Shown one piece after another: positions 2,732 through 25,794 of a DNA stretch of 25,991 nt (positions within the stretch are counted from its first letter, which is position 1; each line of letters opens with the position of its first letter). A model generated the notes under the pieces. That model was not told the origin of the DNA. It worked only from the letters and a program-made list of their open reading frames with translations, and searched no databases. Source of the DNA: a virus; IMG/VR virus record IMGVR_UViG_3300007734_000523, positions 1-25,991 of that record; one strand, written 5' to 3'. The position numbers and the translations under genes were made by a program.

Positions 2732-5700
2732 CTATTCTAAAACTCGCTTGGCCAGACTTACAGTAGCTTGTGCCACAACCTGCTCGTTCGTTCCGTCCGT
2801 CTCGTAGACTTCCATAAGGATGTCTCTTTGGGTGGCTGTGGATAGGATGGCATTGGCCGAAGCAGTTGTGATGTTAAAGATTAAGTCTAACTGATTTCTT
2901 TGTAATTGTAGAGTTTGTGGGATAGGAGGCTTGGGGAAAATAATTGTTGGGTTATCCGTAAAGCCATAGCCCTTATCCAAAACATTGATATTTTGTAACT
3001 GACCATTCTGTATTGTTGGGACATCTAGCCTAGCACCAGAACCAGTCGCATCTTGGATTGTCACGCTATAGTTATCACTAGTATAATAAGAGCCAGCACA
3101 AGTGATGGAAATAGAGGAAATAACAGCACCCGCCGGCGTTGGAACAGAAATAGATGGGGCTGAAGTATATCCCTTGCCGCTCTCGACAATAACATATTCA
3201 CCACTTAAATTCTCATCAACAACATAATTAACTTTTGCTGTCTGCCCCCCAGAGGGGGCTGTACCTACTGTGGCCTCGTATGTTCCGGGTGCGTATCCAG
3301 CACCCAAAGTTGTTACTGCTACTGACGAAAGCAATCCATTAGGTGCGTCTGGACTTGGTGCTGTTACAATAGGAGCAGAGGAATAACCAGCACCAGCATT
3401 AACTATCTGGAATGTATATTTAGATTCTGATTCTTTAATAAGATTTACAACTGCATTTCCCCCCGATTGTGGGCTTTGCCCAATTTGCAAGGAATAAGAT
3501 TGCCCAACTATGTAGCCGTTAGGACTATTTTGCAATTCGAGTGTTCTTAAAAATCCAGATTGGAATCTTCTGTCTGGGTCTGGTGCAGTTGCAACTTGCG
3601 TAGATTGATAACCGAAGCCGGGATTTTCAATAACTACATTTACAGAGCCAGAGCTAGATTGCGTAAATAATATTGAGGCTTGTCCACCATCAATAGGGCT
3701 GGTTGGAACTGAAAGTGAGAATTGTTGATCTATTGAATATCCTTGAGGCTGGGTCAAAACAGAAACACTTTTCACTTGTCCACTAATAAAGTTTGGTGCT
3801 GGGGCGGTAACAATAGGTGCAGAAGTATATCCACTACCACCATTTACAACTACAACTTGTGATCTGCTTCCATTTCTATCCACAACTAAATTTATTTGTG
3901 CTGGTGTTCCAGACGCAGGGGCTTGCACGGAACAGCTATATGTTCCATCTGAATACGATGCTGGCGTATTGCTCAAGCTGGCAGATCGAACTAGCCCCAA
4001 GGTTTGAACGCTTTGGAATGCAATATTTGTGCTTCTGGTATATCCAACGCCCCCACTACCCAATAGATATTGTACGGCGGAAGGGCCGGGTCGGGTTGCG
4101 ATGCTTGCGGGGGTAGAGAAGGCCGTATCAATAAAGCCGTCAGCAAGGGTCGCTGGCATAGTATAAACAGTAGTGCCACTAAATTCAAAAATAACTGGGT
4201 CACTAGATAATGCCCCAAGCTCAACTAGGTCATAAGATTTTGTATATGTTGATGGATATCCAGCACCAGCATCCAAGACCCTAAACTCTGGCGTATATCT
4301 GCCTCCTCCAAAATCTTGATAGCTACCATTGTTTCCCAAATCTAGAGAAGAAACTTGATAGGATGTGTCTCTTGAAGGAATAACAATCTCCATAACCGCA
4401 TATCTGGTTGGGACAATACTTCTATCTTTTGGAACAATCGCAACCAAGGCACTTTTCCCAGCAAATTTATCGTGCTGTGGGTTTGGAAGATTAGAAACAG
4501 CATTTGCATTAGCATTTGTAAGATTTCTTCTGCCAACTACAGTAACACCCTTGATATCTACTGGTGTTCCTTGAGGGAAATATTTTCTGTATTCCTCTGA
4601 AGTGATAGCTCCGCTAGTTAAGAGCGAGCTTCTTCCATATTCTGCTGGCCTAAATACCCTAGTTTGTTGAGGGTCATAAATAGAACCAGTTACAACAACT
4701 CCAATAGAGTTTAGTAATTGAGCCCCCCTTACAACTGCCGGTGTTTGTTGTGCCAAAGCAATTCTTGGGTCAGAACTATACGCACCGCCATTATAGTCTG
4801 CAAACACATAGCGAAACTCGTTATCAAGTGAATAGCCACCAGTAAGCCATTTGTGATTTTGAGTAAAAAATGTTCTGGTATTAAACCCAATTTTAAGACC
4901 CCCAAGATTGATCTTTGTTGCAGTTTCAGAAAAGGTTGCAACAGTATTTAATGCGACACCACCAAAAGCCCCACCTCCGACTATTGCTTGATTTCTATTT
5001 TGTGATAGCCCTTCTAAATTCGTTGTAAAACCAGTTTTTAATACTGGCAAATATGCTAAAATATCTCCGTGTGATACTGTTGGAGTTGCAGAATATCCGT
5101 ATCCAACATCGCTAACAATAATTCTCCATAGCGTACCATCCCCAGTATATTGTATTGATGCGATTGGTCTTTTAGATGTGGGGGGTGTCTGCCCTCCGTC
5201 TGGGTCGCTAAATTCAAGCGAAATCGTGTTTGTATTAACTCCCTTGCAACCCAAGTCTACAATTTGATTAGTAAGACTAGCCAATGATTTAGTGGGCTGG
5301 AAAAGCGTTACAGTCGGGGCATTTGTATATCCAAAGCCCCCGCTTGTTATTGTTAGTGACTGAATAAAACCACCACTTGCAACAACTGTTGCAACCGCTG
5401 TTCCGGCTGTTGGTGCGGCAAGTGTTACGCTTGGAGCAGTCGAATAGCCAGTTCCACCATTGGTGATAGTTATTTTATTGATTGAGCCGCTTACGGCTGA
5501 CGCAGTTGCCGCCGCAATAGTTCCAGTAGTTGCACTAAATACTAAATCAAATGGGCCGTTTGAATAACCAAATCCACCAGTAACAATCGATATTGTTGTC
5601 ACTACCCCAGCAGATATTGTTGCGGTGAAGCTTGCACCAGTTGTTATAGATGGAGAAACATTTAAGCTGTAAGTTCCATTTGGATATCCGCTACCCCTAT

Positions 5701-6331
5701 TTGCAATACTTATTCCAACAACCTCGCCAGCTAAAATAGAGGAAACAAAGGTTGCTGTTGTTGTCGTGTTTAATGATTGTGCTAGGTCTGGATTAACTCT
5801 TACTGAATTATCTGATAATTCATAACTAGCCGCAATCCCAGAATCTACATATTGAAGAGGTCGGGTTATGGTGGTTGGTGTGGGTATTCCAAACCCCGCT
5901 GTTATGCTTGCTGTGACTGGTGCAATATAATCGACATTTAATCTAAATACGCCAGTAACGATTGGGAAGGTTGCTATCGAAGAAATGATGTTAGCGGTTA
6001 CTGGTGTATATGTAAATATTCTGGCTGAACCAACTGTTCTTGCCGCTGGCGATGTTACTATGGTTGCGGTGGCTCTAGTTGTGTTGATTGGCTGTGTGCT
6101 GACGGCTTGACCATCTGCCAATTTTAATGCCGCAGTTCCAAGTCTGGCCTTAAAAGAACTATCATTGGCTGGCTGTTTGGAGCTAACAACATTTTTACTT
6201 ACTTGAAGAACATTAATTTTTAGATTCCTCTGCTCATCAGAAAATATTGTTGGCTTGCTAATTGGGATGGTGCTTTGACCATCCAAAAATCTCCCACTAG
6301 ACACATCGAGAAATAGCTCTTGAGAGTTCAC
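2732..6331 (-). CDS. Long tail fibre / tail-tip protein with many GxGY beta repeats
   Basis: A 1199-residue protein, the largest in the window. Residues 1-80 (MNSQELFLDVSSGRFLDG...) look like an attachment domain. From about residue 205 to 1130 short repeats recur with a core G-x-G-Y-x-x-A-P followed by V-T and a proline: GGTGYSTAPSV, GGFGYTNAPTV, GGSGYTSAPIV, GAGYSSAPIV, GKGYTSAPSI, alternating with GTY-type variants such as GSGYPNGTYS and GAGYAPGTYE. I count roughly 17 units. The last 60 residues (LQRNQLDLIFNITTAS...) form a separate cap-like domain. Extended beta repeats at this site in the operon fit a host-binding fibre. The start appears to be GTG, since an in-frame TAG lies three codons upstream, with TTGACA at 6347-6352. 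The gene is visibly more AT-rich than the head genes. It ends with TAG. Confidence 0.78.
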   Translation of the reverse strand: MNSQELFLDVSSGRFLDGQSTIPISKPTIFSDEQRNLKINVLQVSKNVVSSKQPANDSSFKARLGTAALKLADGQAVSTQPINTTRATATIVTSPAARTVGSARIFTYTPVTANIISSIATFPIVTGVFRLNVDYIAPVTASITAGFGIPTPTTITRPLQYVDSGIAASYELSDNSVRVNPDLAQSLNTTTTATFVSSILAGEVVGISIANRGSGYPNGTYSLNVSPSITTGASFTATISAGVVTTISIVTGGFGYSNGPFDLVFSATTGTIAAATASAVSGSINKITITNGGTGYSTAPSVTLAAPTAGTAVATVVASGGFIQSLTITSGGFGYTNAPTVTLFQPTKSLASLTNQIVDLGCKGVNTNTISLEFSDPDGGQTPPTSKRPIASIQYTGDGTLWRIIVSDVGYGYSATPTVSHGDILAYLPVLKTGFTTNLEGLSQNRNQAIVGGGAFGGVALNTVATFSETATKINLGGLKIGFNTRTFFTQNHKWLTGGYSLDNEFRYVFADYNGGAYSSDPRIALAQQTPAVVRGAQLLNSIGVVVTGSIYDPQQTRVFRPAEYGRSSLLTSGAITSEEYRKYFPQGTPVDIKGVTVVGRRNLTNANANAVSNLPNPQHDKFAGKSALVAIVPKDRSIVPTRYAVMEIVIPSRDTSYQVSSLDLGNNGSYQDFGGGRYTPEFRVLDAGAGYPSTYTKSYDLVELGALSSDPVIFEFSGTTVYTMPATLADGFIDTAFSTPASIATRPGPSAVQYLLGSGGVGYTRSTNIAFQSVQTLGLVRSASLSNTPASYSDGTYSCSVQAPASGTPAQINLVVDRNGSRSQVVVVNGGSGYTSAPIVTAPAPNFISGQVKSVSVLTQPQGYSIDQQFSLSVPTSPIDGGQASILFTQSSSGSVNVVIENPGFGYQSTQVATAPDPDRRFQSGFLRTLELQNSPNGYIVGQSYSLQIGQSPQSGGNAVVNLIKESESKYTFQIVNAGAGYSSAPIVTAPSPDAPNGLLSSVAVTTLGAGYAPGTYEATVGTAPSGGQTAKVNYVVDENLSGEYVIVESGKGYTSAPSISVPTPAGAVISSISITCAGSYYTSDNYSVTIQDATGSGARLDVPTIQNGQLQNINVLDKGYGFTDNPTIIFPKPPIPQTLQLQRNQLDLIFNITTASANAILSTATQRDILMEVYETDGTNEQVVAQATVSLAKRVLE

Positions 6332-16348: not shown

Positions 16349-16560
16349 TTTAATTTCTCCTCTAAAGCCTTGCTAATCACATAGGCAATTACTGCCTCTT
16401 TATCGTGCTTTAATGCAATCATCCCAGCTTTGTATAAATCCCTTTTTGCTTTCTCGTCACAGATCACATCCACCTCAACCATCGGCGGGACTGATCGAAC
16501 CTTTCCGAAGCGAATTATTCCAGCCTTACGATTGCCAGTTTTGGCTTTTGCGTTTTTCAT
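16336..16560 (-). CDS. Small unknown basic protein in the glycosylation cassette
   Basis: A 74-residue protein starting MKNAKAKTGNRKAGIIRFGK. I prefer this ATG to an in-frame ATG seven codons upstream because GGGAAGG lies 6 bases before it. The Lys/Arg-rich N-terminus is followed by a strand (VPPMVEVDVICDE) and a helix (DKEAVIAYVISKALEEKLK). This could be a small nucleic-acid-binding or ribbon-helix-helix-like fold, but no motif proves it. It overlaps the two-domain glycosyltransferase by 35 bases and the methyltransferase by 13, so it is translated with the cassette. Confidence 0.5.
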   Translation of the reverse strand: MKNAKAKTGNRKAGIIRFGKVRSVPPMVEVDVICDEKAKRDLYKAGMIALKHDKEAVIAYVISKALEEKLKCKK

Positions 16561-18184
16561 AGATCGCCTTCCCTTTCTCATAAAACTCTGGCTTGTTGTG
16601 GTTCTTTAATTGTTCGTCTGGGTTGCCCCCTGCAAACATAGGGTTCTCGTGCTTAAATACCAAGTCCCTAGCCTCAATTACGCAATCATCAGCATAGGCT
16701 CTATCCGTGAACTCGTTGTCTGAATAGATGCCATCACTATCTTGGTAGTCTGGGTGGAACATATAGCCCCCCTGCTTCCGTAGCCTCTTTTGCGTTAGGA
16801 TAGCCATACAAAGGAGTTTATCAGTTCGGAGGCCATCTGATACTGCCACCACCCTTTCGGCCTCTACATTGTCGATCTTGGAGCAAATTAGGGCATCCCA
16901 GTACCTAGGTGGACTCCAATCATCGCTCATTTGAATAAGAACCTCGCCCTTGGCTATTTTCGCCCCCGCATTCCAAGCATTGATGATTCCACCCGGATTA
17001 ACTCTTTTCCCCTCGTGTGGGGTATAATCCACCTTCTCATCCTCATCGACCATAAACAACCACTCGATTGCTAGGGGTTCTTTGGCTAAAGCCAACCATT
17101 GCATTTTCCGCTGGAATGCCAACTGGGGGCGGCCTCTTGTGGCGTGGATAACGCTGATCTTTGGCTTTGGATACATATTGGAAAGTTTCTGTGCTTCCTC
17201 TTTTTGTCCGTAGCAGATAGAGGCCATCCGATATCCATCGAGGGCTTGCCAATCATAGATTGCGTGAACTTGATTCCAGTAGTGAAGATTCGGCTTTGGC
17301 ATAGCCATACAAGCCCTTCCAGAGTGCCAAGCCTTTGGCCATTCTCCCCTAGCAGAATACTCTGCCATCAAATAAAAATAAGCCTCTCTGCGAATAGGAT
17401 TAACCCCAATCGCTTCCCCTAAATATCTGAATCGCTTTTCATTGGGCGAACATCTCCCAAGGTTGCATAGAAGTTCGTATTTAAGAGTTTCGTCTAGGTC
17501 TGGGAATGCCAACGCCCTTTCTCCCACTTCAATCGCTTTATCCACTTGCCCCCTCAAGAAAAACTCTTGGTGCTGATAATAAAGGTGGAATGGGGTAGAG
17601 GTTAGTTCGTCTGCTAGGATGCGATGGTTTCTGTCTGCCGAATCTGCCTTGCTGGTAATCGGGCGATGAATCCTAAATACTTTATCAATGGCTAGTAGTT
17701 TGTTCCTATCGTTTGGCTCAAGGGCTTCGTGAACTCGATTCCTCCACCTACCGCACCCCTTCCGCAAGGCCATCTCTCGAATGGGATTGAGTCCGGCATT
17801 CTCAACTAGATATCGAAAGCAAACAATTTCAGACCCAACTTTCTCGGCTTGTTCCAGTCCTTCTTGCAAAACCTTCTCCCCATCCTCTGCCATCACATCA
17901 TCGGCATCTACCCAAATAGACCACTCGTTCTTGCAAGCATCGAGGGCTGTATTTCTAGCAGAAGCAAAATCGTCTATGTGAGGCCAATCAGTTTTCTTGT
18001 TTTTGTAATGAATGACTTTAGCTCCAAGCGAAAGGGCGATCTCCTCTGTCTTGTCTGGCGTAGCTGACCCCCTAGCCATACAAACAATAATTTCTTCTGC
18101 GATGGGCTTAAAAGACTCAATGACTCGCTTGATGTGTGCTTCTTCATTTCCAGCGATTAGGTAAAGGGATATAGGGATTTTCAT
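16526..18184 (-). CDS. Two-domain glycosyltransferase with TPR-like middle
   Basis: A 552-residue protein. Domain 1 (1-130) is a GT2-type GT-A fold: ISLYLIAGNEEAHIKRVIES start, FASARNTALD (73-82) and WVDADDVM (91-98) with the DxDD metal site. The middle (about 195-335) is helical with TPR-like spacing (ALAFPDLDETLKYELLCNLG). Domain 2 (about 340-545) starts PKISVIHATRGRPQLAFQRK and has VLIQMSDDWSPP (415-426), a second GT-A-like site. Two catalytic-type domains suggest sequential sugar additions or a polymerising enzyme. It opens the five-gene cassette just after the capsid terminator. No Shine-Dalgarno; the leader holds TTGACA (18214-18219) and CTAGAAATCCTAG. No membrane segments. Confidence 0.75.
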   Translation of the reverse strand: MKIPISLYLIAGNEEAHIKRVIESFKPIAEEIIVCMARGSATPDKTEEIALSLGAKVIHYKNKKTDWPHIDDFASARNTALDACKNEWSIWVDADDVMAEDGEKVLQEGLEQAEKVGSEIVCFRYLVENAGLNPIREMALRKGCGRWRNRVHEALEPNDRNKLLAIDKVFRIHRPITSKADSADRNHRILADELTSTPFHLYYQHQEFFLRGQVDKAIEVGERALAFPDLDETLKYELLCNLGRCSPNEKRFRYLGEAIGVNPIRREAYFYLMAEYSARGEWPKAWHSGRACMAMPKPNLHYWNQVHAIYDWQALDGYRMASICYGQKEEAQKLSNMYPKPKISVIHATRGRPQLAFQRKMQWLALAKEPLAIEWLFMVDEDEKVDYTPHEGKRVNPGGIINAWNAGAKIAKGEVLIQMSDDWSPPRYWDALICSKIDNVEAERVVAVSDGLRTDKLLCMAILTQKRLRKQGGYMFHPDYQDSDGIYSDNEFTDRAYADDCVIEARDLVFKHENPMFAGGNPDEQLKNHNKPEFYEKGKAIYEKRKSQNWQS

Positions 18185-18290: not shown

Positions 18291-19256
18291 TTAGGCGAAG
18301 TTGGTGGTGATACGAACCGCCGCATTGGGGTCAATCACGACCTCATCGGTGTTCATACGCACCCGCAACACTTGACTACGACGAGCTTCGTCACGATAGC
18401 TTTCGCTAACGAAACCACCAGCCGAGTCACCCGACCAGACCAAGGTGCGTCCGATTCCACCGGCTGTGAACTCGCCACCAGACACTTGACCAACGATGAT
18501 CTTGGTATCTGGAACAATGAACGAGCCAGAGTAGCTCTTGTTCTTGCCAGCGGTGTTATAAGCCGCACGACCAACGAGGAGGTTCTGAACTCCCAGAGCC
18601 GCCGCAATCTCTTGTTCAGAGAGCAAGCGAGCACCAGTATTCGAGATAACTCCGAAGAACTGATTCTGCAAGAGGGTGGAGCGTCTGATCAACTCAAACA
18701 CATTGGCCGACATCGCAACGCAATTCGCTTCGTAACCATACTGGGCAAGAGCCAATTTGGCGGTTGCCACATCACGAGCCACATCGACTGTTGCGACTAA
18801 AGCTTGCGTATAGGCTACTGCACGAGTCTGATCAGCGATAGTGAACGGAGTCGTTGCATTCCAGAGAAGATCGGAAACCCGCTTCTCGTGGGAGAGCTTC
18901 AACTGACGGAGCAAGAACTTCGCAGTTTCGGCCTCATATGCAAAAAACCTGTTCAAATCTTTTGCACTATCATCCGGTACGAGTTCCTCAAGTCCTACCT
19001 CGTTAGTTGCGTAGTTTGCAGAGGCGAAGGAACGAATCCCTCGGCTGTAGCTAGCACCGCTTTCACGAGCGAGTGCGTTGTTGGAGAGCAATTCGCCACC
19101 AGCTAATTGAACTTTGAGATATGTTCCGCTTTTCGCGTCAACATTCTGCAAAGGGAGCAAATTCGCTCCGATCAAACCGACATCGGCTTGAGGGGCTTCG
19201 ATCAACGCTTGGTTGATGTCTGCCCGAATCGTTGTACCACCGCTTACGTATGCCAT
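18291..19256 (-). CDS. Major capsid protein (HK97-fold type)
   Basis: A 321-residue protein starting MAYVSGGTTIRADINQALIE. Features fit an HK97-like capsid subunit: an N-terminal helical arm, an E-loop/P-domain style region (GASYSRGIRSFASANYATNE; then a long helix AYEAETAKFLLRQLKLSHEK), an A-domain segment CVAMSANVFELIRRSTLLQN, and a C-terminal strand pair (VLRVRMNTDEVVIDPNAAVR). Gene order protease, decoration, capsid agrees. It lacks a Shine-Dalgarno and starts from GAATATAAATATATGG. The strong terminator directly after it suggests this is the end of a highly expressed transcript. No propeptide can be delimited with confidence. Confidence 0.85.
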   Translation of the reverse strand: MAYVSGGTTIRADINQALIEAPQADVGLIGANLLPLQNVDAKSGTYLKVQLAGGELLSNNALARESGASYSRGIRSFASANYATNEVGLEELVPDDSAKDLNRFFAYEAETAKFLLRQLKLSHEKRVSDLLWNATTPFTIADQTRAVAYTQALVATVDVARDVATAKLALAQYGYEANCVAMSANVFELIRRSTLLQNQFFGVISNTGARLLSEQEIAAALGVQNLLVGRAAYNTAGKNKSYSGSFIVPDTKIIVGQVSGGEFTAGGIGRTLVWSGDSAGGFVSESYRDEARRSQVLRVRMNTDEVVIDPNAAVRITTNFA

Positions 19257-20772: not shown

Positions 20773-23700
20773 TCAAAGAAGATCGCCGTCTGCCTTGCGA
20801 TACGACTCCTTGACCTCTCCCCCACCAGCCATCTTGAGAAACTTGTTCACCCTAGCCATAGCCCAAGCGTTGCGTGAGTTAGGCTTTCCCCCGGTAATCG
20901 TTGGCCTAAAGCTGGTCGAGAACGCACCCGCCCCCCTTCTAAACACTTTCTTCAATGCTCCAAGGCTAGGGGCTTTCCTTGAGGGGTGCTTGTCTTTGAA
21001 CTCGGCAATCTTGTTCTTTAGTGCCTCCTCGTTCTCGGCTGAAATCTCAATGTCACCAGCCTTGCTTCTAGTGGATGCTGTGCCTTCTGGGTTCTCCTTT
21101 GAGCCTTTGATTCGTTCCTTTGGAGGGGCTGGGGTTTGGGAGACTGGTCGGGCTAGTTGCTTTTTGTCTGTAATCGGCCCACCCACAATCCAAGCGTCAC
21201 AAGTCCTTTTTGCCGCACACTTAAAGTCAAATATCTCGCAGTAGCCAAGATTGCCAGCTTTTTCAACCTCGCCAGCTTCAGTTCCTATTCCTTTTGAGAT
21301 ACAATCTAAAACTCTTTTGCGTTGGTCGAAGGCCGCACAATTCCCACAAAGCATCTTCTTGGCCGTTGCTACATCACCTTGGAACTCATCTGCCTTGGCT
21401 TTCCAATAATCTTCATTTGGTTCATTAGGATTGGCTGGGCCGTAGTTAGCGTCATCAACCGCTGTTTGCCTATTGGCTAGGTTGGTTTTGATGTCTTGGG
21501 TTGCGATTGGGCAAGAGGCTGGTTCTGCTAGTTCTTTCTTGTCCCTTGCCTCCATCTGTCCAACGACTTTCCTAGCCCAAGCATAGCCAGCATCGCCACC
21601 CCATCCATTCCAAGCTTGCCAGCCCTTGCCCTGCTCATCCCAAGTTGAACCTTTTTTATCGACTTCGTGCCTATCAAAAAAGGCTTTCATTCTGCGAATT
21701 GTGTCGGGAGACATCTTAACGCCATTCTGCAAATCCCTCGCTCTGGCGATGCCCACCGGAGTCATTCCTCGTTGGCTGGGTGGTTTCGTCTCCCTTACAT
21801 CCAAGGCTCTTTTAGCGGCCTCCCTTGCTCCTTGTGGTGGGGTAAAATCAATCCCATCATACTTTGCCAACTCAATCCCGCCCATCATTCCCTCGATGAG
21901 CATCTTGATGGATGAGGGGTCGAGGTTTTCTAAAACTTCTAAATTACTTTTTTTTTGAGTTGTGCCAGCGGGGGCGGGCGTGGGCGTAGGAGGTTCTGGG
22001 GCTGGGGGTGTTGAGCCTCCCGAAGTATCCTCGCCTTGGTCTTTTGCAATCTGCTGTTTCTCTTCCTTGGTCGTTGGAATGGTTGTGCCAACATTGACCC
22101 CAGCGATGATTGCCCTTGCTTGGTCTGGACTGATGGTTGGGAAAGCCGCCGTGATAATCGAAACCGCACCCTCCTTGGAAACTGCACCCATAGCAACTGC
22201 ATTGATAACATTGATAAGCGAAGCAACTTGAGCACCATTGAGTGAAGCACCTCCAAGCATATCCTCGTCCGAAGGCTGTCCAGCGGGTTTCTGCTCGCCT
22301 TCTGGCGTGGTTGCTTGTGCTTTTTGTGAATCTCTGGTCAATCCCTCTGCGGCGATGTCGGAAATAGTATCTGCTGAAACTTCGTATTCCCCTGCCAAGT
22401 CCTTCACCAGCTTGGCCTCAATCGCCCTTTGCCTCATAGCACTCTCGAAGTCTTGCCCTCGCTCGGCGTAGATGTCGGCGGCGGTGCGGAGTCCAGTCTT
22501 AAACTCGGAGATTGCGGAAGCGGATTCTCTCCCTAAATCAATAGAGACATTAGCCCCGAAGTTAAAGATTCCCCTAGTTGTTCTTGTCCCAACATTGTTT
22601 TCAATCAAACCCCTAGAAACTGCGTCTGCAATCACGATGTTCTTAATAGGGCGAAGAACTTTATCATCTAACAACTTCTGGTATCTGCGGAAGGTTCGTC
22701 CCGCTTGTTGCATTTCAAGGCGAGCAGTCGGGCCACTCATAGCGGAAGGGTCTACGGCAAATGAATATGGGATTCCAAGTCCAAGGCAAATGTTCCTCAA
22801 AAGAATCTTGTGGAACTCTGCAAACGCACCAGAGGGACGGCTCGGCCCATCTGGGAAAACAATATCTTCGCCCGGTTCTAGGTAAGAGATTTTTCCAGAC
22901 TCAATCGCTTCTAGTTTAATCGTGTTCCCATTCAAATCCTCATCGTTTGTGAGGCTAGACAAATCAGAAGCATTGTTGTTGTTCCTCTTCACGATTCCAG
23001 CTTGGGAACTTGCATTTTTAGCGGCCATTTTCTCAAAGTTGATAATGTCGTAGATGTCCGTTGCATCATTGATTGCAGTATGGAAAGCGGAGATTCCTCG
23101 GTACTGGTCGATGCGGAGCGGGTCGAATAAGTGGAATGCTTGGCTAGATGGAATGGTTGCTTGGTAGGTGTAGAAATCCCCGATGCTTCGGTTGTAGATG
23201 TCGTAGGCACTTGGAGCACCAGTATCACGATCAATATGGATTCCACCGATCAAATCTAGGCTTGTATAAACCTTAAATGGGTCTCCCAATCTATCTGCCT
23301 CGATGCCTTGAATCTTTAGATTGCCATCCTTATCTCGGACTAAAACGAAAAGAAAATCACCATCTCGGAGCATCGACATCATCGCCACTTGCATAAGGGT
23401 TGACCCAGTATGTCTTGTGGTTAGGTCGCACTTGTCCCACCATTCTGCCCAATATGCCTCGACCTCGGTATTGACTTCGGGGTTCTCGGTTCGGGCTTGG
23501 TAGGAGATATTGGCGGCGGTATGGGAAGCAAACTTCATTAGGATAGAGCGAACTAGGCCAACATTCTCTGCCAAGTCCCTCGCCCTTTTCATCAACTCTA
23601 CTCGGTCATAATTGGAACGATAATCTTCCGCACCAGAAAGCGAACTCGGCCCCTTGCGTTCCCTTGTATATTTAACTGCATCATAGGAGAAGTTGACGAG

Positions 23701-23790
23701 CTTTTGTCGTGCAATCATCCGATTAACTGCCCCTTGCGGGTTCAGAAAAGCAACGGCTTTATCTATTAAGTTTAGCTGTGCTTTTTTCAC
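20773..23790 (-). CDS. Lambda-family portal protein with long C-terminal multi-module extension
   Basis: A 1005-residue protein, about twice the usual portal length. Residues 1-470 match lambda-type portals: LAENVGLVRSILMKFASHTA, LRDGDFLFVLV, HLFDPLRIDQYRGISAFHTA, and a core ending RGIFNFGANVSIDLGRE. About 515-565 is a helical module seen behind many portals (ASLINVINAVAMGAVSKEG), then a Pro-rich linker (594-608). Beyond it: a module at 645-750 (ARARDLQNGVKMSPDTIRRM, WNGWGGDAGYAWA), a six-Cys module at 815-864, and at 930-1000 a DUF5824-like end (RRGAGAFSTSFRPTITGGKP, WAMARVNKFL). The start is GTG, overlapping the gpW-like stop as GTGA. An A9 tract falls at codons 612-615, between linker and extra modules. 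Confidence 0.85.
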   Translation of the reverse strand: MKKAQLNLIDKAVAFLNPQGAVNRMIARQKLVNFSYDAVKYTRERKGPSSLSGAEDYRSNYDRVELMKRARDLAENVGLVRSILMKFASHTAANISYQARTENPEVNTEVEAYWAEWWDKCDLTTRHTGSTLMQVAMMSMLRDGDFLFVLVRDKDGNLKIQGIEADRLGDPFKVYTSLDLIGGIHIDRDTGAPSAYDIYNRSIGDFYTYQATIPSSQAFHLFDPLRIDQYRGISAFHTAINDATDIYDIINFEKMAAKNASSQAGIVKRNNNNASDLSSLTNDEDLNGNTIKLEAIESGKISYLEPGEDIVFPDGPSRPSGAFAEFHKILLRNICLGLGIPYSFAVDPSAMSGPTARLEMQQAGRTFRRYQKLLDDKVLRPIKNIVIADAVSRGLIENNVGTRTTRGIFNFGANVSIDLGRESASAISEFKTGLRTAADIYAERGQDFESAMRQRAIEAKLVKDLAGEYEVSADTISDIAAEGLTRDSQKAQATTPEGEQKPAGQPSDEDMLGGASLNGAQVASLINVINAVAMGAVSKEGAVSIITAAFPTISPDQARAIIAGVNVGTTIPTTKEEKQQIAKDQGEDTSGGSTPPAPEPPTPTPAPAGTTQKKSNLEVLENLDPSSIKMLIEGMMGGIELAKYDGIDFTPPQGAREAAKRALDVRETKPPSQRGMTPVGIARARDLQNGVKMSPDTIRRMKAFFDRHEVDKKGSTWDEQGKGWQAWNGWGGDAGYAWARKVVGQMEARDKKELAEPASCPIATQDIKTNLANRQTAVDDANYGPANPNEPNEDYWKAKADEFQGDVATAKKMLCGNCAAFDQRKRVLDCISKGIGTEAGEVEKAGNLGYCEIFDFKCAAKRTCDAWIVGGPITDKKQLARPVSQTPAPPKERIKGSKENPEGTASTRSKAGDIEISAENEEALKNKIAEFKDKHPSRKAPSLGALKKVFRRGAGAFSTSFRPTITGGKPNSRNAWAMARVNKFLKMAGGGEVKESYRKADGDLL
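21948..21956 (-). promoter_or_regulatory. A9 slippery tract in portal gene
   Basis: On the coding strand, CAA AAA AAA AGT holds nine consecutive A at codons 612-615. It contains A AAA AAA in frame, suitable for -1 ribosomal slippage, and is long enough for polymerase slippage. A -1 shift or an inserted A reads AAG TAA and stops; loss of one A reads GTA ATT TAG and stops. Either yields a portal of about 615 residues without the C-terminal modules. Function as a recoding site is inferred. Confidence 0.5.
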
Positions 23791-24020
23791 GAGAACTTTG
23801 CGTAGGTTGTGCGGATACGAGTGCCATTGGCAGACTCAATGGCTAGGGTCAATTCTGCGATAGTATCACGAACTTCTCCGAGGTTCGCCCTTGAAAAAGA
23901 ACGACCCGCTATCGAATAGCTTGTACCCGCCACCGCTATCGCTTCAAGACAAGTGACATATTTATCACGCAGAGAAGTTAGGGTGGCTAGGGGTAAGCCG
24001 AGAAAATCACCCTTCGCCAT
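23787..24020 (-). CDS. Small head-tail joining protein, gpW-like
   Basis: A 77-residue protein starting MAKGDFLGLPLATLTSLRDK. A first helix is followed by a beta hairpin (GTSYSIAGRSFSRAN) and a second helix (LGEVRDTIAELTLAIESANG), then a basic tail (TRIRTTYAKFS). This alpha-beta-beta-alpha order, with a hairpin carrying a substrate-like SIAGRSF, is that of lambda gpW, which seals the portal. I choose the ATG at 24020 over an in-frame ATG four codons upstream because GAGG lies 6 bases before it. A TTGACA box is 13 bases upstream. It overlaps the terminase end by 14 bases and the portal start by 4. Confidence 0.72.
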   Translation of the reverse strand: MAKGDFLGLPLATLTSLRDKYVTCLEAIAVAGTSYSIAGRSFSRANLGEVRDTIAELTLAIESANGTRIRTTYAKFS

Positions 24021-25794
24021 TCTCAACCTCATCTGTCAAACTTGCGGGTGCAACTTTCAATCGTCCATATAAGGCCGCCCCAACGATGTTCATACATTCG
24101 CAATCCATTAAGTGATTATGCTTACCGACTTGCTTCCACACAAGCCTTTCCCTTCCAGTCATAGGGTTTTTCACCCTCACCTTTACCTCCGCATCAATGT
24201 GAACTCTCCAAACATCGGGTGTGTCTAGGGCTATGTAGCCGGGTTCTTTGATAAGGTTCGATAGGATGTCTTTGATGGATGGATTCGACCACCTCCAAAC
24301 TGGGCAGAACTTCCATTTCCACCCAGCCTTCGATTGAACTGCCTTACCACTAAAGGGGTCACCATTAGCGATTCGAGCATAGGGGCGTTGTAGTTTCTGC
24401 TCTCCTACAATCTCGGAGAAGCTCGTGCGATCTGAACCGACCAACGCCATCCAGCCATTCACACAACAATTATAGTACACCGATCTGGTTTGATCGCCCG
24501 AATCGCAAAAGACGCACTTTGATTCCACCCCAAACTCATCGGCTTTTGCTTTGATGTCGCCCCAAGTTTCTAGCCTCCCTGCCCACACGAGCCTTGACCT
24601 CCCCTCCAAATCCCAAGCTCTCACAACGCACCAAGCGTGGAATCCCCCAGCCTCTTGAATATCGCAAGCCATAATGAGCTTCTCGCCCATCCGAACTTCA
24701 CCCATCTTGTAATCACCCGCCACGATCTCCATCTTCTCGCTTTCGTGTTCCATCCAAGGCTCGGCTAGAACTCGGTTCACGAAGTCTTGTAGGCCGATGA
24801 TTCCGCTGTGCTTGTCTTGTAGCCATTTGCAAGCCAGCGACCCCCAAGACACCCAAGGGGCATATAGGCCATTAAGATGATAGGAGCGTCTAGCTGGTTC
24901 GCCCTTTAGATTGGTTACCCTCCACTCGCCCTCTCTCAACATCTTGGTTTTCTGTCCGTCTGTAATCTTGCCCTTACACTCCTCGCACTCGTAGTGAGTG
25001 CTAGATTTCACCAGCTTGAAATCATAAACTCCATCCTCAATCTTGGCGGCCTCGTCCCACTTCACTTGCCCCCAAACTAGCTTCTGCTTATGCCCACAAT
25101 GAGGACAAGGAACAAAATAGAAACGCATATCACCCTTCTGCCATTCAGACCAAATGATTGAGTCGGCAGTTGTGGGTGTGCTGGTCGCTATGATGAGATG
25201 GTTTGGGTAGGTGCTGACTCGTGCCTCTGCTAGTTGAACTGGGTTCGCCTCTCGCCCCGACCCTGCTTGCTCTGGGAACTTGTCCACCTCATCCATACAC
25301 AATAAGGCAATCGAGCGACTGGAAAGAGCCGAGGGGCTTGTGCCAGCCCACCACACCGAGCATCGCTTAAAGTGTTGTTCCAATATCTTTATCTTATCTG
25401 TATTCTCTGGTTTTTCCTTGGCTAGTGCAGGGCAATCGTCAATCATCGGCAACCACCTAGTTTCCGTGAAAGACCTAGCCAAATGTTCGCTAGGCATTAC
25501 CCACAAAGCGGGGCAAGGTCGCTCTGCTATGCGGTACGCTAGGCCAGCTAGAATAGTTGTGGTCTTGCTTGTTTGAGCCCCCCATACCAACACTACCCTA
25601 CGAATCGAATCATCGCCAAAAGCCTCTAGTGGTTCACGGACATAGGGCGTGAGCGTTGTCGAATATGCTCCGGGTATGTTTGTTACTCTTGCGGAAAGGG
25701 TGAGGTTTTTCTCTGCCCACTCTGGAATTGAGAGTTGTTCCCTTGGCTCAAACAAAAGACGAGCGAAGTTCTTGGCCTCATCGATCTGGTTCAT
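24007..25794 (-). CDS. Terminase large subunit, GpA-like
   Basis: A 595-residue protein. The ATPase part has a Walker A-like GAQTSKTT (72-79), a GpA-style variant, and Walker B LLCMDEVDKF (164-173, D168-E169). A zinc-finger-like set C230-x2-C233 and C270-x2-C273 (PCPHCGHKQ; YECEECKG) separates ATPase and nuclease, as in the GpA family. The nuclease has D378 (IMACDIQ), D431 (VFCDSGDQT) and D564 (NHLMDCECM) as likely metal ligands. It cuts concatemeric DNA and pumps it into the prohead through the portal. The gene starts directly after the methyltransferase stop and has no clear Shine-Dalgarno. Any small subunit lies outside the window. Confidence 0.92.
   Translation of the reverse strand: MNQIDEAKNFARLLFEPREQLSIPEWAEKNLTLSARVTNIPGAYSTTLTPYVREPLEAFGDDSIRRVVLVWGAQTSKTTTILAGLAYRIAERPCPALWVMPSEHLARSFTETRWLPMIDDCPALAKEKPENTDKIKILEQHFKRCSVWWAGTSPSALSSRSIALLCMDEVDKFPEQAGSGREANPVQLAEARVSTYPNHLIIATSTPTTADSIIWSEWQKGDMRFYFVPCPHCGHKQKLVWGQVKWDEAAKIEDGVYDFKLVKSSTHYECEECKGKITDGQKTKMLREGEWRVTNLKGEPARRSYHLNGLYAPWVSWGSLACKWLQDKHSGIIGLQDFVNRVLAEPWMEHESEKMEIVAGDYKMGEVRMGEKLIMACDIQEAGGFHAWCVVRAWDLEGRSRLVWAGRLETWGDIKAKADEFGVESKCVFCDSGDQTRSVYYNCCVNGWMALVGSDRTSFSEIVGEQKLQRPYARIANGDPFSGKAVQSKAGWKWKFCPVWRWSNPSIKDILSNLIKEPGYIALDTPDVWRVHIDAEVKVRVKNPMTGRERLVWKQVGKHNHLMDCECMNIVGAALYGRLKVAPASLTDEVENGEG

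What the first reader, a model, noticed from the sequence alone, without database searches (positions are those of the whole stretch)
21948..21956. A9 tract at a portal domain boundary: one-base slip in either direction stops at once
The portal gene has nine consecutive A exactly between the Pro-rich linker (ending about residue 608) and three extra C-terminal modules. Zero frame continues to 1005 residues. A -1 ribosomal slip (or an added A) gives AAG TAA; a lost A gives GTA ATT TAG. All slips therefore produce a clean portal of about 615 residues, like the dnaX tau/gamma arrangement. A mixed portal ring of short and long subunits could carry a limited number of the extra modules at one vertex.
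Basis: partly seen in the sequence, partly recalled or inferred. Interest (0 to 1): 0.72.

Follow-up and report, generated by a model that had tools for sequence, protein, structure and literature searches.

The report
A9 slip-stop site in phage portal
A run of exactly nine A's in a phage portal gene, kept letter for letter in relatives and followed by stop codons in both other reading frames, looks built to make a short portal without cargo alongside a long one that carries extra modules or enzyme-like effectors.

Summary
Window 21948-21956 (- strand) is A9 in codons CAA AAA AAA AGT. Gaining an A gives a stop at once (TAA); losing one gives TAG two codons on. Length alone is unremarkable, but the conservation is not. 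In 180 distinct relatives of the portal ORF there are 151 A9 runs, 15 A8 (elsewhere) and no A10+. In 143 of 151, stops lie within 5 codons in both other frames; 7.8% at random codons. At the QKKS junction the Gln, both Lys, Ser and Leu codons are invariant in 78 of 78 distinct sequences (AGT and TTA, 10% and 13% of their families), while nearby codons drift. A9 persists through four codon-phase switches on the core tree and recurs at other junctions. It precedes 138 of 139 distal cargoes (modules or swappable metallopeptidase, ADP-ribosyltransferase or ParB-like tails) but occurs in 2 of 25 complete portals without them. Best explanation: RNA polymerase slippage, as in Thermus thermophilus dnaX, yields bare and cargo-bearing portal subunits from one gene; ribosomal -1 slippage is the main rival. 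Slippage, two proteins and a mixed ring are inferred, not shown. Searches of the held papers showed no such portal.

The parts
20773..23790 (-). Portal gene, zero frame, 1005 aa (long form)
   Evidence: PF05136 E 1.5e-53; phrog_21 portal E 3.4e-58
22351..23790 (-). Portal core, about residues 1-480
   Evidence: Pfam 58-371; invariant columns run to about residue 477 in A1
21958..22350 (-). Variable region ending in the Pro-rich linker, about residues 481-611
   Evidence: translation; no invariant column between residues 477 and 623 in A1
21948..21956 (-). A9 slip run, codons CAA AAA AAA AGT (residues 612-615)
   Evidence: 151 runs of exactly nine and none longer in 180 distinct ORFs
21944..21946 (-). 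TAA stop reached after gaining one A (or after a -1 ribosomal slip): short form of 615 aa
   Evidence: sequence; same context in L002; AGT codon 78/78
21939..21941 (-). TAG stop reached after losing one A: short form of 616 aa
   Evidence: sequence; same context in L002; TTA codon 78/78
21535..21885 (-). C-terminal module 1, about residues 636-752
   Evidence: phrog_2859 E 3.7e-22, residues 643-750
21157..21522 (-). C-terminal module 2, Cys-rich, about residues 757-878
   Evidence: one of the phage DSL-LC01 genes under a match to residues 649-909 is annotated high potential iron-sulfur protein
20776..21138 (-). C-terminal module 3, about residues 885-1005, weak DUF5824 match
   Evidence: PF19141 E 0.0024, below cut-off

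Best explanation
The A9 run is a selected slip-stop element. RNA polymerase (most likely) slips on nine template Ts, so some portal mRNAs gain or lose an A. Because both other frames meet a stop within a few codons, those mRNAs encode a clean portal of about 615 residues; unslipped mRNAs encode the long form with the C-terminal modules. In relatives the same element stands before swappable effector-like domains. The likely purpose is dosage: most portal subunits build a normal ring while a limited number carry cargo, presumably inside the head. Shown: the element, its exact length, both stops, their conservation and their link with distal cargo. Inferred: slippage, its mechanism, two proteins, the mixed ring, the location of the cargo.
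For: Exact length: A-run counts in 180 distinct portal ORFs are A6 333, A7 86, A8 15, A9 151, A10+ 0; the 15 A8 runs lie in other peptides, none at a slip junction. Synonymous constraint in 78 of 78 distinct sequences: CAA, AAA, AAA, AGT, TTA; AGT is 10% of Ser and TTA 13% of Leu codons, and a Leu three codons later uses five codons. The TTA serves only the stop for a lost base, which -1 ribosomal slippage does not need (inference). Both stops within 5 codons in 143 of 151 runs over 31 sequence contexts; random codons 7.8%. Codon phase before module 1 changed at least 4 times on the core tree (90 rows) with A9 kept. Recurs at other junctions, e.g. L024 before its effector, L039, L044, L317, L374. 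Cargo link: 138 of 139 with distal cargo have A9 upstream, against 2 of 25 complete ORFs without. Flanks of 665 kb (redundant) held 2 A/T9 runs; in the larger set 4 distinct ones were found outside the portal ORF, 2 of them the same kind of junction. The effector linker in other phage genes: 0 of 32 loci had A8+ upstream in that ORF. Precedent: T. thermophilus dnaX (PMC5009743, passages).
Against: No RNA or protein data. Most A9 copies descend from common ancestors, so counts are not independent; on the tree only 6 supported independent pairs differ in cargo, A9 goes the same way in 4-5, never the opposite, median p 0.0625. L227 and L248 have a linker-led insert inside the portal linker and no A9; L212 and L223 have A9 but no distal cargo. 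L377, a distant portal (25% identical) with the same kind of linker, has no A9. In 8 of 151 runs one or both stops lie 7-15 codons away. 44 ORFs of the window's type (module 3, no terminal effector linker) keep A9, so cargo must include the modules themselves, whose function is unknown.
Confidence: 0.72

Rival explanations
1. Ribosomal -1 frameshifting at A_AAA_AAA (E. coli dnaX type) makes the short form; RNA polymerase is not involved.
For: Both codon phases offer A_AAA_AAA; the -1 stop is within 3 codons in most contexts. 70-mers downstream fold better than random in-ORF ones (mean -16.2 vs -13.1 kcal/mol). SD-like sequence upstream in 5 of 84 contexts against 10 of 463 random codons, if anything slightly more (p 0.064).
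Against: Only 7 A's are needed, yet exactly 9 are kept; the favoured A_AAA_AAG (recalled) is never used at the QKKS site (78/78 AAA). The +1-frame stop is conserved too. 79 of 84 contexts lack an SD-like sequence. No consistent downstream structure: over 31 contexts the mean z is -0.43 with 2 below -2, by a simple shuffle of my own; the seven folded by tool gave -0.37 (window), -0.81, -2.18, -0.01, 0.75, 0.15 and -2.16.
Confidence: 0.2
2. Phase-variation locus: replication slippage switches cargo on and off between genomes.
For: Homopolymers are typical contingency sites (recalled); both slips give a stop.
Against: No contig with A8 or A10 at the QKKS site: 53 of 53 A9; no A10+ and no junction A8 in 180 distinct ORFs. 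Contigs are consensus sequences, so rare variants within a population would not show.
Confidence: 0.03
3. The A-run is a recombination join for swapping cassettes, with no slippage.
For: It sits at module boundaries, and the tails are swapped freely.
Against: In most loci the effector starts at the GRDCG-type linker, about 150-400 aa after the A9. Recombination does not explain both stops, the exact 9, or A9 in different codon phases.
Confidence: 0.04
4. Coincidence or lysine requirement of the linker.
For: A run of this length is not rare by composition.
Against: AAA is only 50% of Lys codons in these ORFs; invariance extends to the AGT and TTA codons; flanks nearly lack A/T9.
Confidence: 0.01

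Closest known systems
Thermus thermophilus dnaX (tau/gamma by transcriptional slippage)
   Same: Run of nine A/T in one long ORF, stops near in both non-zero frames, long and short product of one gene (PMC5009743, passages)
   Different: Phage portal rather than clamp loader; the optional part is swappable cargo; slippage itself not measured here
E. coli dnaX -1 ribosomal frameshifting
   Same: Short product by a stop right after the slip site
   Different: Uses A_AAA_AAG plus stimulators (recalled); here AAG is absent at the QKKS site, an SD-like sequence is missing in 79 of 84 contexts, and the +1-frame stop is conserved as well
MuF polymorphic toxins and polyvalent head effectors (PMC5576092, PMC5512222, PMC9503650; passages)
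   Same: Variable C-terminal enzymes on a head/packaging protein; [quoted passage not shown]
   Different: Carrier is a lambda-family portal with a slip-stop element; 'frameshift' occurs 0 times in the main texts of these three papers
Phage T7 gp10A/10B and similar frameshifted capsid proteins (recalled)
   Same: Minor longer form of a virion protein in a mixed assembly
   Different: There the frameshift adds the extension; here the slip removes it

Membership tests
T. thermophilus dnaX-type transcriptional slippage | Run of 9 or more A/T in the coding sequence | tested here: met
   A9 in window; 151 runs of exactly 9 in 180 distinct ORFs
T. thermophilus dnaX-type transcriptional slippage | Nearby stops in both non-zero frames | tested here: met
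   sequence and same context in L002; 143 of 151 within 5 codons
T. thermophilus dnaX-type transcriptional slippage | Heterogeneous mRNA and two proteins | not testable with these tools
   needs RNA and protein data
E. coli dnaX-type -1 ribosomal frameshifting | Slippery heptamer A_AAA_AAR in frame | tested here: met
   A_AAA_AAA in both phases; AAG never at QKKS
E. coli dnaX-type -1 ribosomal frameshifting | Upstream SD-like stimulator | tested here: not met
   missing in 79 of 84 contexts; 5 of 84 vs 10 of 463 random codons, p 0.064; none within 18 nt upstream in the window
E. coli dnaX-type -1 ribosomal frameshifting | Downstream stem-loop | tested here: inconclusive
   lower mean energy than random in-ORF stretches, but mean z -0.43, 2 of 31 contexts below -2
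Phase-variable contingency locus | Run length varies between genomes | tested here: not met
   53 of 53 A9
Lambda-family portal | PF05136 domain beside a large terminase | tested here: met
   E 1.5e-53; GpA ATPase E 6e-64 in ORF 24007-25794
MuF polymorphic toxin | MuF domain on the carrier | tested here: not met
   Pfam scan of the window portal lists only PF05136 and a weak DUF5824
Head-carried polymorphic or polyvalent effector (functional likeness) | Swappable C-terminal enzyme domains on a virion protein | tested here: met
   in relatives: ART PF01129 E 1.6e-9 in L035; zincin-like fold. The window itself has no such tail

The most novel reading that the evidence does not exclude
A family of environmental phages meters the number of effector-loaded subunits at the single portal vertex by a hard-wired transcriptional slip-stop: nine A's plus a stop in each other frame, acquired or re-formed whenever cargo is fused to the end of the portal.
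Probability: 0.55. Interest if true: 0.85.

Novelty: new variant of a known kind. Interest (0 to 1): 0.76.

Why it matters
If true, it answers how a phage can hang bulky enzymes on a twelve-subunit ring that must still package DNA: one gene makes two portal forms at a set ratio. It would be the first mixed portal that I know of, would link recoding to virion-carried effectors, and gives a simple sequence signature (A9 plus both stops before cargo) to look for in other virion proteins.

Tried and rejected
Phase variation: judged very unlikely, no length variants among contigs. Chance: rejected. Recombination join: judged unlikely. Ribosomal or hairpin stimulators: SD-like sequence missing in 79 of 84 contexts; no consistent structure downstream (mean z -0.43, 2 of 31 below -2) or upstream (mean z -0.27, 2 of 31 below -2), although the window's own 80 nt upstream fold unusually well (z -2.87), which I could not extend to relatives. 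Host: genome contigs gave 8 loci from metagenome bins; L254 and L255 hold distant cores (36-38% identical, no run of 8 or more), so the host stays unknown; no tRNA in the window. Fold of modules 1-3: pLDDT 54, not used for a fold search. L102/L109, non-portal matches to the A9 pattern, lie in no ORF over 80 codons. Tree-based independent pairs: too few for significance. Literature: searches of the held open-access library for portal with frameshift, slippage or two forms (listings, plus passages of PMC8008677 and PMC4493119) showed no portal with a programmed short form; the library lacks most subscription journals. Passages of PMC3482391 were also seen.

Full report
What is there. The window is a virus record of IMG/VR type. 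On the - strand lies a 1005-aa lambda-family portal (20773-23790), upstream of it the large terminase (24007-25794). The A9 at 21948-21956 reads CAA AAA AAA AGT in frame. A gained A gives AAG TAA; a lost A gives GTA ATT TAG (same context in L002). So both slips end the portal at 615-616 residues, right after the Pro-rich linker. The run is the only A/T run of 7 or more in the window, but by composition alone it is not rare.

Conservation. Of these 80, 61 hold A9 at the junction before module 1, 7 hold it only behind module 1, and 12 hold none (my count). After further searches I had 286 portal loci, 180 distinct ORFs. Their A-runs count 333 of six, 86 of seven, 15 of eight, 151 of nine and none longer. 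The 15 A8 runs lie in other peptides, not at slip junctions.

Codons. In 78 distinct sequences with the peptide QKKS[NS]L the codons CAA, AAA, AAA, AGT and TTA are invariant. AGT makes up 10% of Ser codons and TTA 13% of Leu codons in these ORFs. The Leu three codons further uses TTA, CTG, TTG, CTT and CTA. AGT plus a following A(A/G) makes the stop reached by gaining an A; TTA-G makes the stop reached by losing one. Both stops are therefore held, not only the -1 one.

Other codon phases and places. In another group of portals the run sits in a different codon phase (GAT AAA AAA AAA G..), still exactly nine, still with stops in both other frames; on a tree of the portal core the phase changed at least four times among 90 rows. 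Relatives in which the run before module 1 is missing have A9 directly before the effector instead (L038, L039, L044, L060, L246 and others), e.g. GAT AAA AAA AAA GTA GAA ACT GAA and GAT AAA AAA AAA GTA ACT AAT, where the stops are made from different letters (TAG or TAA; TGA or TAA). L024 and L304 have a second A9 before an effector behind module 1; L317 has A9 right behind the portal core and another behind module 1 in its next ORF. Over 31 contexts, 143 of 151 runs have both stops within 5 codons; 8 have one or both at 7-15. At random codons of these ORFs the chance is 7.8% (set of 156 ORFs).

Cargo. Many relatives carry tails after a linker such as GRDCGQDEGGTFGPDN or DCGTGAGGFKxGNTC: an ADP-ribosyltransferase (PF01129 E 1.6e-9 in L035; L034 below Pfam's cut-off), an HEYGH metallopeptidase (Pfam matches weak), and weak ParB-like matches in L060. 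One common metallopeptidase folds well (pLDDT 89.8) and matches, weakly, the zinc metallopeptidase 4l7a (Foldseek E 3.4e-4, TM about 0.4) and, among predicted viral proteins, a phage protein named lethal factor (E 5.6e-6) and minor capsid or MuF-like proteins. Of ORFs with distal cargo (terminal effector linker or module 3) 138 of 139 have A9 upstream; the exception, L077, is cut by the contig end and has its A9 behind an internal linker. Of 25 complete ORFs without such cargo, 2 have A9. Sixteen ORFs, mostly cut by a contig end, could not be classed; 5 of them have A9. On the smaller set used for the tree, 98 of 98 against 2 of 21. The tree gives only six supported independent pairs, four to five concordant and none opposite, p 0.0625, so shared ancestry explains part of the table. 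The same kind of linker in 32 loci where it lies in other phage genes or a distant portal (L377, 25% identical) has no A8+ upstream in its ORF: the device belongs to this portal family.

Mechanism. Transcriptional slippage fits best. Nine A/T is a length reported to slip efficiently in bacteria, and T. thermophilus dnaX uses nine Ts with stops in both non-zero frames to make about equal amounts of two products (PMC5009743, passages). Exact length held across codon phases, and conservation of the +1-frame stop, point to the polymerase rather than the ribosome. An SD-like sequence is missing in 79 of 84 contexts (5 of 84 against 10 of 463 at random codons, p 0.064, so if anything slightly more common). 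Downstream stretches fold better on average than random ones, but against shuffles there is no consistent structure downstream or upstream (single cases, among them z -2.87 for the 80 nt upstream in the window). Ribosomal -1 slippage is not excluded. That slippage occurs at all is inferred.

Function. Portals form twelve-subunit rings (a passage of PMC4493119, speaks of a dodecameric portal); in known relatives the C-terminus points into the head (recalled). A ring of all-long subunits, 1491 residues each in L004, would be crowded. A mix of bare and loaded subunits would limit cargo. Portal-effector fusions are in print as part of polyvalent proteins (PMC5512222, PMC9503650, passages) and MuF toxins are the nearest system (PMC5576092, passages). 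I saw no report of a slip-stop in a portal (search listings).

Limits. Metagenome contigs only; host unknown; many sequences are close kin; effector function is by fold and motif only; the function of modules 1-3 is unknown and their model was poor.

Noticed in passing
L017, L020, L038 and others, downstream of portal ORFs ending GRLL(K/V)KTRG: A small ORF with an ITIDD motif lies within 700 nt after 10 of 18 complete portal ORFs with this metallopeptidase tail and after 0 of 137 others; a candidate immunity or partner gene. Contig ends may hide some.
   Followed up: partly
L015, L021, L024, L035 and others: Where an effector replaces modules 2-3 in the portal ORF, a separate ORF with module 2 often lies within 1,500 nt downstream (28 of 155 complete ORFs), sometimes with a second effector linker (L024 7096-8718, L281 4914-6575).
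   Followed up: partly
L375, L380, L386 and 29 other loci: The CGTGxGGFKxGNTC-type linker recurs, up to four times per ORF, in other phage proteins, like a general joint between domains.
   Followed up: partly
L227, L248: Linker-led insert inside the portal linker, before module 1, with no A9.
   Followed up: no
window 21957-22036: The 80 nt of transcript just upstream of the A9 fold better than all 200 shuffles (z -2.87); not a general feature of relatives.
   Followed up: partly
window 16526-18184: ORF on the - strand matching phage glycosyltransferases (phrog_13126 E 4.1e-24), close to the major head protein gene (18291-19256).
   Followed up: no
window 2732-6331: 1199-aa ORF with matches to head closure Hc2 and other large virion proteins.
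   Followed up: no
L201/L265: Portal ORF broken in module 2, with the usual A9 and effector continuing in another ORF 252 nt further.
   Followed up: no
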